From assembly GCA_022072415.1 (NCBI GenBank), contig JAJVHW010000151.1:1-38107 (forward strand): 38,107 bases of DNA, in the 5' to 3' direction. The DNA is from Planctomycetota bacterium. Lineage in GTDB: Bacteria > Planctomycetota > JAJSAM01 > JAJVHW01. Below are positions 1 through 38,107 of this stretch, one piece after another. The translations under genes and the position numbers were made by a program. Numbering within the stretch: position 1 is the first letter of the stretch; each line of letters starts with the position of its first letter. A model generated the notes under the pieces. That model did not search any database. It was not told where the DNA came from and worked only from the letters and a program-made list of their open reading frames with translations.

Positions 1-3360
<3,360 letters not shown>

Positions 3361-3381
<21 letters not shown>

Positions 3382-4005
3382 GATCGCCGCCGCGGCGGCG
3401 CCCGGATCGTCGGCGGCGAGCACCCCTGCGCACACCGCGATCCGCCGGAACCCCGCCGCGGCGACGAGGCCCGCGTTCTCCGGGGTGATCCCGCCGATCG
3501 CGAAGGCGGGGACGCCCGCCGCCTCCGCCGCGGCCGCGAGCGGCGCAAGGGCCGCGGGCCCCGACACCGGGACGTCCCGGCCCTTCGTCCGGGTCGCGAA
3601 CACTGCGCCGACGCCCACGTAGTCCGCCCGGTCGGCGAGCGCGCGGCGGAGTTCGTCTGCGTCGTGCGTGGAGACGCCGACCAGGACGCCCGCGGCGAGC
3701 GTGGCCCGGGCCGACGGGACGGCCTCGTCGTCCTGCCCCAGATGGACGCCGTCCGCCCCCTCGTCCCGCGCGACCGCGACGCGGTCGTTGACCACGAACA
3801 GCGCGCCGCTCCGCTCGCAGAGCGCGCGCAGCCGCCGCGCCGACCGGAGCACGTCCCCGTCGCCCGCCGACTTCTCGCGGAGCTGGACCATGTCCACGCC
3901 GCCCGCGAGGGCCGCCGCCACAGCCTCCTCGAGCGGACGCCGCGCGACGGACGCCGTCGCCAGCAGGCAGAGCCTCGAAGCGCGGAGCCGCGCCGACCGG
4001 TCCAT
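3361..4005 (-). CDS. thiE: Thiamine-phosphate synthase ThiE
   Basis: VDMVQLREKSAGDGD, LFVVNDRVAVARDEGADGVHLGQDD, VGVSTHDADELRRA, ADYVGVGAVFATRTK, PAFAIGGITPENA are diagnostic TMP synthase motifs. Convergent 21-nt overlap with the preceding gene. Confidence 0.95.
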
Positions 4006-35283: not shown

Positions 35284-37434
35284 ATGCCCGGCTGCGGCTG
35301 CCCGTCCCCGCCGACCCCGCCCCCGCCCGCGGGTCCGCATCCGATGCCGGGCCCGCTGGTGCCGCTCGACGCTGCCGTGCCCGGAGTTGAGGTGCCCGGC
35401 GTCGATCCGCCGAACATCGACATGCCGGTCGTGGGCCGCCCTGTCGAGCCGGATCCTCCGCCGTGCAGCTTCAAGAGCCTCTGCCCCCAGGTGGACGGCG
35501 CCTGCTGCTGCAAGTCGGAGGACGCCGACGAGGGGACGCGCTGCTGCTGTTGCTGCTGCTGCGAGTGCCCGTGCGAGTGCGGAGGCGAAGAGTCCGGCGC
35601 TCCGCTCGAGCCGCCGCCGATCGAGTCCGCGGATCTGGTGTCGGGCGGCGTGGGGTTCGCGCCGGGGCCGGGTGCGGGTCCGGGCGGCGAAGTCCCGGCC
35701 GACACACGCAACCCCTGGGGCGACTCCGCCCCGCTCCCGCCGCGGGCGCCGTCGCAGATCCACTGCCCGCCGGGGAGCAGCTACCGGGAGCAGGTCGGCT
35801 GGAACGCGCAGGGCCAGCCGGTCGGCGGGTGCTGGCCGCCGGCCTGCCCGCTGCCGTCGGGGGTGATCTACCCGGCGGGGACCCAGTGCGTCGGCGAGAC
35901 GCCGGCGGGCTGGCAGTACGTCGAGAGCACGGTGCCGACGGCGCCGCAGGACGCAGCGGCGAGCGTCAGCCAGTCGGGAGCGCCGCAAGGCCCGGCCCGC
36001 GGCGGCGGCTACGCCTGCCCGCCCGGAACCGCCTTCATGGAGCAGATCGGCTGGAACGAGCACGGCCAGCCGGTCGGCGGCTGCTACCCGCCGCCCTGCC
36101 CGCGCCCGGCGGGCGTGATCTACCCGCCGTCGATGGAGGGTCTCTGCGCGCCGGACGCGCCGTCGGGCTGGTCGCCCTACTCCGACGCGCAGGCAACCGG
36201 CCCCGCGCCCGGCGGTCCCGGCGGCGGAGTCGGTGGAAACTACTTCGACGATCCGCGCGAGTGGGTCGGCCGCGACCCCGGCGCGGCGATCGGGACGTCG
36301 AAGTACCCGCTCTCGCCTCCGCCGGACAGCACGTGGCCGGGTGCCCCCAATTATCTCTACATCACGGTTGGGAACCCGCTTCCGAAACAGTCGAGATCAC
36401 CAACGTTCATACCGGAGGCGCCGGTCGGACTTGTCTACTCAGGCGTTTGGGCGGCAGGTCCCAAGTACCCGTCAGGGGTAGATGGTCCGGTGCTGAGCTT
36501 CACGTTTCAGTATTCGCTGCAGGATGACGTAGCTCCCGATGGAACGAAGGTCGAGCCGCCCCCGCCCATCCCAAAGGCGCCCAAGCCCACGCCGCTGCCG
36601 GATGAGGAGCCCTGCGAGGAAGTCTGGCTCGGATTGTTCTTCAACGGTACGCACGCCACATGGAAAGGTGACCATGTAGGCTCTAGCATCTTCAACGCGC
36701 GGGACGAGTATCGACTGCTAGCGCACAAAGCCGGAGCAAAGCCGATAGTTCACTACGAAGGGTTCACTGTCAGCATTCCGGGGTTGGTGTACGATCCCAC
36801 AGACTCGGCGAACTCTTTCGTTGAGTTCGACGCAGTGGTCGAACGGTCCTTCAAGGTCGCCTGTAACGCCATTTGCTCGAATGCTAAGAGACACTGCGAC
36901 AAGTCCAAGCTGCGAATCGACATGTTCGGATGGTCGCGCGGTGCCGTGGCGGCGCTCTGGCTTTCAAACCTCATGAACCGATCGGACTGCTTGTGTCCCA
37001 CCCCTGCAGGGAAGGTCGCCGCCAGCGGGTTTCCGATTCGATACATGGGTCTCCTCGATCCCTGCGACTCGAGCTTGACATTCCCGCAAGATCGCCTAGC
37101 GTTTCTGAAAGGATTCAAGAGCTTCCCACACGATGTCGATAACTTTGATTCGGCGGGATATGGCTGCCCGGCAAACGTGGAGAATGTGTTCGCCGCTTAT
37201 GCAATGAAAGGAGTTCCGGGGGATATCCTGTTCCAGGCTGACAAGGTATTCATCCCAAAGGGTAGCAAGACCAAGGGGTGGCTTTCAGAGAGAGACATGT
37301 CGCACCTTCCAATGACCTACCAGGTGAATGACTATGAGACGACGCATGGGAAGATCGGATACCCCCTGACTGACGCAGGTGCTTGGGAGGACTTGTGGGG
37401 ATTCTTCAAGAGAGTGTCGAGCGCGAAAAAATGA
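35284..37434 (+). CDS. Chimeric Pro/Cys-rich protein with C-terminal DUF2235/Tle1-like alpha/beta-hydrolase domain; candidate toxin/effector
   Basis: N-terminus MPGCGCPSPPTPPPPAGPHPMPG...GACCCKSEDADEGTRCCCCCCCECPCECGGEE; two CPPG...GGC.PP.CP repeats; C-terminal VWLGLFFNGTHATWKGD...KLRIDMFGWSRGAVAALWLSNL (GxSxG), MGLLDPCDSS, DMSHLPMTY as candidate triad positions. Confidence 0.65.
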   Translation: MPGCGCPSPPTPPPPAGPHPMPGPLVPLDAAVPGVEVPGVDPPNIDMPVVGRPVEPDPPPCSFKSLCPQVDGACCCKSEDADEGTRCCCCCCCECPCECGGEESGAPLEPPPIESADLVSGGVGFAPGPGAGPGGEVPADTRNPWGDSAPLPPRAPSQIHCPPGSSYREQVGWNAQGQPVGGCWPPACPLPSGVIYPAGTQCVGETPAGWQYVESTVPTAPQDAAASVSQSGAPQGPARGGGYACPPGTAFMEQIGWNEHGQPVGGCYPPPCPRPAGVIYPPSMEGLCAPDAPSGWSPYSDAQATGPAPGGPGGGVGGNYFDDPREWVGRDPGAAIGTSKYPLSPPPDSTWPGAPNYLYITVGNPLPKQSRSPTFIPEAPVGLVYSGVWAAGPKYPSGVDGPVLSFTFQYSLQDDVAPDGTKVEPPPPIPKAPKPTPLPDEEPCEEVWLGLFFNGTHATWKGDHVGSSIFNARDEYRLLAHKAGAKPIVHYEGFTVSIPGLVYDPTDSANSFVEFDAVVERSFKVACNAICSNAKRHCDKSKLRIDMFGWSRGAVAALWLSNLMNRSDCLCPTPAGKVAASGFPIRYMGLLDPCDSSLTFPQDRLAFLKGFKSFPHDVDNFDSAGYGCPANVENVFAAYAMKGVPGDILFQADKVFIPKGSKTKGWLSERDMSHLPMTYQVNDYETTHGKIGYPLTDAGAWEDLWGFFKRVSSAKK
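35542..35562 (+). repeat. TGC trinucleotide tract encoding seven consecutive cysteines
   Basis: tgc tgc tgt tgc tgc tgc tgc followed by gag tgc ccg tgc gag tgc. Confidence 0.85.
35764..35928 (+). repeat. Four-Cys protein repeat, copy 1
   Basis: CPPGSSYREQVGWNAQGQPVGGCWPPACPLPSGVIYPAGTQCVGETPAGWQYVES. Confidence 0.8.
36016..36183 (+). repeat. Four-Cys protein repeat, copy 2
   Basis: CPPGTAFMEQIGWNEHGQPVGGCYPPPCPRPAGVIYPPSMEGLCAPDAPSGWSPYSD. Confidence 0.8.
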
Positions 37435-37745
37435 TTTCGGAGGACGGTCATCGAGGGAAGTCGAGCTCCGGTTGTCGTTCGCTCGCGTTGGTGCTCACTT
37501 TCGCGCTCGGCGCGATCACGATCGCCGAGTCTATTCGAGTGCGGTTCTCCCCCACAAGCGAGGAAATGGGGCTGGGAGAAGTACTTCGTGCGGCGGTGTT
37601 CGTTGTTCCGGGTCTGCTCGTCGTGATCATTTCTTGTCTTCACATCCTCCTAACTGATCCGAAGTCGCCGCTCTGGTCGAGAGTCCTCTGGAGTTGTTTG
37701 GGGGGCACATCGATTGTTTGCTTGATCATGCTGCTTCTGCACTGA
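37431..37745 (+). CDS. Small predicted membrane protein; candidate immunity protein for the upstream hydrolase
   Basis: ATG at 37431 overlaps the TGA of the upstream gene (ATGA); MISEDGHRGKSSSGCRSLALVLTFALGAITIAESI...GEVLRAAVFVVPGLLVVIISCLHILLTDPKSPLWSRVLWSCLGGTSIVCLIMLLLH, three hydrophobic segments. Confidence 0.6.
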   Translation: MISEDGHRGKSSSGCRSLALVLTFALGAITIAESIRVRFSPTSEEMGLGEVLRAAVFVVPGLLVVIISCLHILLTDPKSPLWSRVLWSCLGGTSIVCLIMLLLH

Positions 37746-37917
37746 GCGACTCCACACGTGCGAGCCGCTTGGATCGTCCTTCGGTACTGACGGGTCCGGC
37801 CCGAAGGCCTCTCAGTCCACCTCAGGCGACCCTGTGTTTGGGAGGTCTTGCGCCCCGTCTTCCACGGGAGACGAGCCATGCATATCCGGCTGTTGACCGT
37901 AGCCCCAAGGGGTTGTG

Positions 37918-38107
37918 CTAGAAGGGCAACGGATCGGCTGGCTCGTCGGCGTAGACCTGCGCGTAGGTGCGCGGCGGGACCCGGAAGGTGTCAAGGTAGT
38001 TGTCGCACGCAGCGCACTCACGCTGCGCTCGTTTCGTTCATCTGCGACGCCGCCGCGGCGGCGCGTTCGGGGTTCAGCGCGACGGTCTCGATCGGTGACC
38101 AGTTGCG
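37918..38107 (-). pseudogene. Possible frameshifted gene 3' end (or sequencing error) at the window edge
   Basis: Minus strand: frame A RNWSPIETVALNPERAAAAASQMNETSAA* (stop at 38018-38020), then frame C ECAACDNYLDTFRVPPRTYAQVYADEPADPLPF* (stop at 37918-37920); both have coding-like high GC3. Confidence 0.35.

What the first reader, a model, noticed from the sequence alone, without database searches (positions are those of the whole stretch)
35284..37745. Candidate polymorphic-toxin-like module: Pro/Cys-armed DUF2235 (Tle1-like) hydrolase with overlapping membrane immunity candidate
The C-terminal ~300 aa carry LFFNGT..., a GWSRG nucleophile elbow in IDMFGWSRGAVAA, a downstream LLDPCDSS and a late His (DMSHLPMTY). 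This is the layout of DUF2235/Tle1 phospholipase-type alpha/beta-hydrolases. The gene ends in a 4-nt ATGA overlap with a ~104-aa multi-TM protein, as expected for a toxin/immunity pair. The N-terminal arm (Pro-rich, Cys-rich, two four-Cys repeats) does not look like known T6SS adaptors such as PAAR, VgrG or Rhs, nor like a Sec signal. If the toxin reading is right, the delivery or anchoring architecture may be undescribed. The toxin role and immunity function are inference.
Basis: partly seen in the sequence, partly recalled or inferred. Interest (0 to 1): 0.85.

Follow-up and report, generated by a model that had tools for sequence, protein, structure and literature searches.

The report
Cysteine-armed lipase-type toxin with immunity gene
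A Planctomycetota bacterium carries a gene that looks like a modular weapon: an unusual proline- and cysteine-rich front half joined to a horizontally acquired, lipase-like toxin half, followed by a small membrane protein that probably protects the producer; the toxin type is known, but the front half and how it gets the toxin out are not.

Summary

The 716-aa ORF (35284..37434) and the 104-aa, 3-TM ORF (37431..37745) overlap by ATGA. Pfam gives no hit for the protein alone. Seven diverged Planctomycetota relatives recover its C-terminus at 1e-19 with it left out. Their joint profile hits Tle1 structures first in the PDB and matches DUF2235 sequences (98%). Two relatives carry the domain directly behind an RHS core.

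Polymorphic-toxin hallmarks: (1) a same-family genome has the same N-arm on an unrelated C-terminus with another membrane gene; (2) GC3 falls from 0.91 to 0.68 at residue 352; (3) the same genome has two displaced toxin tails, one followed by an intact immunity homologue (dN/dS about 0.4).

The arm matches no model and no PAAR, VgrG, Rhs, WXG or Sec signal. It carries a Cys cluster and a GPxGEVPPDxRxP motif that in the same bacterial family often sits at the start of exported proteins. Cys-cluster arms recur on toxins in a second Planctomycetota family, but there homology is not shown. Known kind of toxin, new variant of arm; delivery route open.

The parts
35284..37434 (+). Toxin gene, 716 aa: Pro/Cys-rich N-arm plus Tle1-like hydrolase C-terminus
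   Evidence: ORF; N-arm shared with G001 protein P0003; C-terminal homology
35284..35301 (+). N-terminus MPGCGC, no signal peptide; homologue begins MSGCGC
   Evidence: alignment of P0001 with P0003
35464..35586 (+). Cys cluster CSF..CP..C..CCCK...GTRCCCCCCCECPCECGG
   Evidence: Shared with P0003; 7 Cys in 8 residues; the genes among 183 called that reach 5 Cys in 8 are toxins or their neighbours
35677..35715 (+). GPGGEVPADTRNP motif (GPxGE[VI]xxD[TS]RxP)
   Evidence: 11 places in 5 genomes of the bacterial family, 0 for the reversed pattern; in several it is the mature N-terminus of Sec-exported proteins
35763..35877 (+). 4-Cys repeat, copy 1 (CPPGSSYREQVGW...GGCWPPACP)
   Evidence: self-alignment, 82.6% identical to copy 2
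36015..36129 (+). 4-Cys repeat, copy 2 (CPPGTAFMEQIGW...GGCYPPPCP)
   Evidence: related repeat in P0003
36301..36513 (+). Shared pre-toxin segment KYPL..WPGAPNYLYI..FIPEAPVG..SFTFQY
36337..36340 (+). Composition break (residue 352): GC3 0.915 before, 0.676 after
   Evidence: log-likelihood ratio 33 against at most 9.5 in 500 shuffles
36616..37431 (+). Tle1/DUF2235-like alpha/beta-hydrolase domain (residues 445-716)
36934..36936 (+). Predicted nucleophile S551 (GWSRG)
   Evidence: Invariant in A2; aligned with GFSRG of DUF2235
37057..37059 (+). Predicted catalytic D592 (GLLDPCD)
   Evidence: Invariant in A2; aligned with the DUF2235 Asp
37345..37347 (+). Predicted catalytic H688 (TTHGKIG)
   Evidence: Invariant in A2; aligned with GxHSDVGG His; kept in both displaced tails
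37431..37745 (+). Candidate immunity gene, 104 aa, about 3 TM helices, ATGA overlap
   Evidence: hydropathy; intact 104-aa homologue on G000:C25 (67/104 identical, dN 0.23, dS 0.53)
37876..37981 (-). Remnant of the 3' end of an IS1595-type transposase gene
   Evidence: copies overlap the end of the transposase gene at L047:1348-2298, which is PF12762/PF12760
37982..38107 (.). Second multicopy repeat at the contig end
   Evidence: 100% to G000:C38 start, 95% to C36

Best explanation
This is a polymorphic-toxin/immunity pair of a Planctomycetota bacterium. The N-terminal ~440 residues are a lineage-specific, Pro/Cys-rich arm that traffics or anchors the protein outside the producer's cytoplasm. 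The C-terminal ~270 residues are a Tle1-like lipase with the triad Ser551-Asp592-His688, which would hydrolyse membrane lipids of a rival cell, probably from its periplasm. The overlapping 104-aa, 3-TM protein sits in the producer's membrane and neutralises incoming or escaping toxin. The toxin end and the immunity gene were acquired together, by recombination inside the conserved arm near residue 352; older toxin/immunity ends are displaced and kept as a tandem array elsewhere in the genome. Shown by sequence: domain homology, arm swapping, composition break, displaced copies, selection on the immunity homologue. Inferred: lipid substrate, target compartment, immunity function, exported location. 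Unknown: the delivery machine.
For: Tle1-like domain: left-out profile E 1.4e-19; PDB top three 6sjl, 9j3f, 4o5p; hhalign to DUF2235 set 98.3%, E 2.4e-14; triad aligned. The domain directly follows an RHS core in L023 and L024. Arm swap: G001 P0003 has the same arm with an unrelated C-terminus and its own membrane ORF. Break at residue 352 and low GC3 through the immunity gene; in G001 the GC3 drop lies at about residue 461-480. Displaced tails on C25, one followed by an intact immunity homologue with dN/dS about 0.4. Downstream lipoprotein candidates beside relatives.
Against: No Pfam or NCBIfam model matches P0001. No usable structure model. Only two arm-bearing proteins were found, in 2 of 392 phylum genomes, so the swap rests on one pair. 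No homologue of this immunity gene was seen beside the relatives' toxins. No delivery machine was found in this genome (no VipB/TssC, no phage-type sheath), though it is only 76% complete. Toxicity and protection are untested.
Confidence: 0.83

Rival explanations
1. It is an ordinary T6SS Tle1-type phospholipase effector whose N-arm is a T6SS loading region.
For: Closest solved relatives are Tle1 proteins; same-family G001 has three VipB/TssC matches; Zhang et al. (PMC3482391) infer that Tox-ABhydrolase-1 (DUF2235) is mainly T6SS-delivered.
Against: No TssC found in the window's genome or in G002, G288, G118 or G210; no model hit for PAAR, VgrG or any other family in the arm; no such genes seen in the window neighbourhood.
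Confidence: 0.25
2. It is a surface-anchored lipase for nutrition or envelope remodelling, not a weapon; the small membrane protein is a chaperone or anchor.
For: The GPxGEVPPDxRxP motif is shared with exported non-toxin HEAT-repeat and VWA proteins.
Against: Arm with swapped C-terminus, displaced tail/immunity copies, foreign composition, RHS-toxin position of relatives.
Confidence: 0.1
3. It is a decayed or inactive locus left by horizontal transfer beside IS fragments.
For: IS1595 remnant and repeats directly downstream; displaced tails elsewhere are truncated.
Against: Both ORFs are intact, the triad is complete, and tail and immunity comparisons show dN/dS of 0.34-0.43.
Confidence: 0.06

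Closest known systems
Tle1 phospholipase effectors / Pfam PF09994 (DUF2235, T6SS_Tle1-like_cat); Tox-ABhydrolase-1 of Zhang et al. 2012 (PMC3482391)
   Same: GxSRG elbow, (D/N)GT motif, Asp after the next conserved stretch, late HxxIG/HSDVGG His; toxin role in RHS proteins of the phylum
   Different: Too diverged to match PF09994 by itself; short stand-alone catalytic domain; Cys/Pro arm instead of VgrG/PAAR/Rhs parts
Tli1 immunity proteins
   Same: Encoded next to the toxin, envelope protein
   Different: Tli1a of P. aeruginosa is an outer-membrane lipoprotein (PMC13133936); here a 3-TM protein without lipobox
RHS-type and CDI-type polymorphic toxins with displaced cassettes
   Same: Constant N-part, variable C-part, immunity gene, displaced C-terminal/immunity copies
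   Different: No RHS, filamentous-haemagglutinin or other known trafficking domain in the arm

Membership tests
PF09994 / Tle1-like catalytic domain | Protein scores above the Pfam model cut-off | tested here: not met
   No match at E<=10 for P0001 nor at E<=0.1 for P0004; two of eight relatives match weakly, best 2.5e-6
PF09994 / Tle1-like catalytic domain | Profile-level homology | tested here: met
   PDB Tle1 hits 1.8e-9; hhalign to DUF2235 set 98.3%, E 2.4e-14
PF09994 / Tle1-like catalytic domain | Ser-Asp-His triad in family motifs | tested here: met
   S551, D592, H688 aligned
T6SS Tle1 effector | T6SS genes in the genome | tested here: inconclusive
   No VipB/TssC in G000, which is 76% complete; present in same-family G001
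T6SS Tle1 effector | VgrG/PAAR or adaptor association | tested here: not met
   None in the protein or among the window genes examined
Polymorphic toxin system | Constant N-part on variable C-parts | tested here: met
   P0001 versus P0003; one pair only
Polymorphic toxin system | Adjacent immunity gene and displaced cassettes | tested here: met
   Overlapping gene; C25 array
Polymorphic toxin system | Recognisable trafficking domain | tested here: not met
   Arm without any Pfam, NCBIfam, PHROGs or PADLOC match
Polymorphic toxin system | Toxicity and specific immunity | not testable with these tools
   Needs expression experiments
Tli1 lipoprotein immunity | Lipobox signal | tested here: not met
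   P0002 has TM segments and no lipobox

The most novel reading that the evidence does not exclude
Planctomycetota have an undescribed way of displaying or exporting polymorphic toxins, in which Cys-cluster, Pro/Gly-rich arms (and, in this bacterial family, the GPxGEVPPDxRxP motif) tie toxins into an extracellular, Cys-bearing assembly that includes small discoidin-like (F5/8 type C-like) proteins encoded next to them, under ECF-type sigma factors.
Probability: 0.3. Interest if true: 0.8.

Novelty: new variant of a known kind. Interest (0 to 1): 0.6.

Why it matters
Polymorphic toxins are usually recognised by their trafficking domains. An arm that matches none of them, yet is swapped between toxin ends, points to a delivery or display route in Planctomycetota that annotation pipelines miss: the proteins tested here have no domain hits. 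The arm, the GPxGEVPPDxRxP motif and the neighbouring small beta proteins give concrete handles for finding more toxins and for testing how they leave the cell. If the arm only loads onto a T6SS, it is still a new loading region.

Tried and rejected
Single-sequence AlphaFold2 of the hydrolase (pLDDT 38) and of the G001 C-terminus (pLDDT 34): useless, so no fold search was run. Relatives from the genome search were not handed to the structure tool because its rule does not name that source. Plasmid, phage and viral collections: no relatives of the C-terminus; none of the arm in viral contigs. Homology between the Cys modules of the G000/G001 arm and those of G288 or the C84 protein: tested with an HMM and block shuffles, not significant, so only a shared composition is claimed. 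An early DUF2235 alignment (A3) used a wrong frame for L010 and was replaced by A6. A tblastx of the window end against C84 gave only low-complexity noise. The start at 35344 chosen by the simple gene caller was rejected because MxGCGC at 35284 is conserved.

Full report
Observation. The two ORFs are as described: 716 aa at 35284..37434 and 104 aa at 37431..37745, sharing ATGA. Neither matches a family above cut-off in Pfam, NCBIfam, PHROGs or PADLOC. The window is contig C21 of a 3.86-Mb, 76%-complete genome. A genome placed in the same bacterial family (G001) is a Planctomycetota MAG, JAIOPE010000066.1.

C-terminal domain. A phylum-wide search with residues 435-716 gave weak single hits in 392 genomes. 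Seven of the proteins found share a GxSxG elbow, an Asp after the next conserved hydrophobic stretch and a late His. With the query left out, their HMM scores it 67.5 bits (E 1.4e-19); the best of 2000 shuffles scores 6.5. The eight-sequence profile finds Tle1 structures as the first three PDB hits: 6sjl 1.8e-9, 9j3f 1.4e-4, 4o5p 0.0013; 4o5p is labelled only 'uncharacterized' in the file, and I know it as P. aeruginosa Tle1. hhalign against three DUF2235 proteins gives 98.3% probability, E 2.4e-14. S551, D592 and H688 align with GFSRG, (F/W)D(T/P) and GxHSDVGG. In L023 and L024 the domain directly follows an RHS-associated core domain, the place of RHS toxin tips. Zhang et al. 2012 (PMC3482391) already list DUF2235 as a polymorphic-toxin domain (Tox-ABhydrolase-1), planctomycetes included.

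N-arm. The same-family G001 carries an 871-aa protein (L009:4918-7533) with the same arm: MSGCGC, the Cys cluster, GPAGEIPPDTRAP, the CPPGT repeat and YLYI..FIPEAPVG..SFTFQY. It ends in an unrelated C-terminus and is followed by its own candidate membrane ORF. The arm was found in no other genome of 392 in the phylum sample and, in genome contigs, only in that G001 contig. GC3 of the window gene breaks at residue 352 (0.915 to 0.676; likelihood ratio 33, shuffles at most 9.5) and the immunity gene has 0.66, against 0.94-0.99 for five other window genes. The break lies inside the region shared with G001, whose own GC3 drop is at about residue 461-480. I infer that tails are exchanged by recombination within the conserved arm.

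Displaced cassettes. Contig C25 of the same genome begins with a tandem array. Unit 1 (128-714) has a toxin tail cut at the residue-652 equivalent plus an intact 104-aa immunity homologue with the same ATGA overlap. Unit 2 has the same tail and a different small TM gene. Unit 3 has only a small TM gene distantly resembling that of unit 2. Each is headed by a truncated copy of the start of the metallo-beta-lactamase-fold gene that stands intact at 2778-3623 (PF00753). dN/dS is 0.43 for the immunity pair and 0.34 for the tail. Whether C25 adjoins C21 is unknown. Downstream of the window pair lie a transposase-end remnant (IS1595 type) and a second repeat.

Wider pattern. In genomes G288, G118 and G210, of another family of the phylum, relatives of the hydrolase or other toxin-like genes have arms with dense Cys clusters. 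G288 has one arm type on at least two different ends (A4). Neighbours include small ~110-aa beta proteins, GCGCGG or CCCCCC proteins and sigma-factor genes. The small beta family, related versions of which weakly match F5/8 type C, also occurs in the window's genome (C76, C54) and in G002, and in no other of 40 relatives searched. On C76 it neighbours a 1157-aa protein that carries the GPxGE motif. The Cys modules themselves are not demonstrably homologous between the two bacterial families, so this is a lead, not a result.

The GPxGE[VI]xxD[TS]RxP motif. A degenerate DNA pattern finds it at 11 places in five genomes of the family and never in the reversed control. At several of these it follows a signal peptide (AHGGxYRGPxGEVPPDSREP) in exported HEAT-repeat proteins, and a VWA protein carries it too. 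This suggests, but does not prove, that the toxin arm works outside the cytoplasm.

Delivery. VipB/TssC is present in G001 but was not found in G000, G002, G288, G118 or G210, and no phage-type sheath in any of the six. The window genome is incomplete, so a T6SS cannot be excluded.

Mechanism. The best reading is a polymorphic toxin whose lipase tip attacks rival membranes and whose 3-TM partner gives immunity. Tle1 of P. aeruginosa kills from the periplasm with a Ser-Asp-His triad and is neutralised by an outer-membrane lipoprotein (PMC13133936); here the partner is a multi-TM protein, a difference. Substrate, target and route are inferred.

Noticed in passing
L004:1-3623 (G000 contig C25): Tandem array of displaced toxin tails and small TM genes, each headed by a truncated start of the metallo-beta-lactamase-fold gene; the repeated gene start looks like a recombination point.
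   Followed up: partly
L045:1278-5246 (G000 contig C84): 1322-aa Pro/Ala-rich protein without domain hits, with tandem partial duplicates around it and the same transposase-end repeat nearby; possibly a second polymorphic-toxin locus.
   Followed up: partly
L056:1-12000 (G000 contig C54): Four near-identical 118-123-aa F5/8 type C-like genes alternating with variable genes and two sigma-factor-like genes.
   Followed up: partly
L055:6495-9968 (G000 contig C76): 1157-aa protein with a weak PcRGLX-like lyase match and an internal GPGGEVMPDSRTP motif, next to a small beta-protein gene.
   Followed up: partly
L036:1035-11624 and L037:3133-4251 (G288 contig C132): Three genes with one conserved N-arm ending in a CCxCCC cluster; two carry the hydrolase, one a different end; tail-collar-like and repeated small beta proteins between them.
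   Followed up: partly
L057:7199-8736 (G002 contig C9): Small beta protein followed by a Pro/Gly/Cys-rich 235-aa gene and a 146-aa TM gene: same layout as a toxin/immunity pair.
   Followed up: no
L060, L061, L064, L066 (exported HEAT-repeat proteins), L065 (VWA protein): AHGGxYRGPxGEVPPDSREP, following the signal peptide in the HEAT-repeat proteins, looks like a family-wide tag of exported proteins.
   Followed up: partly
L058:1447-1596 (G001 contig C26): 150-bp remnant of the toxin arm (77% identical), outside any intact toxin gene.
   Followed up: partly
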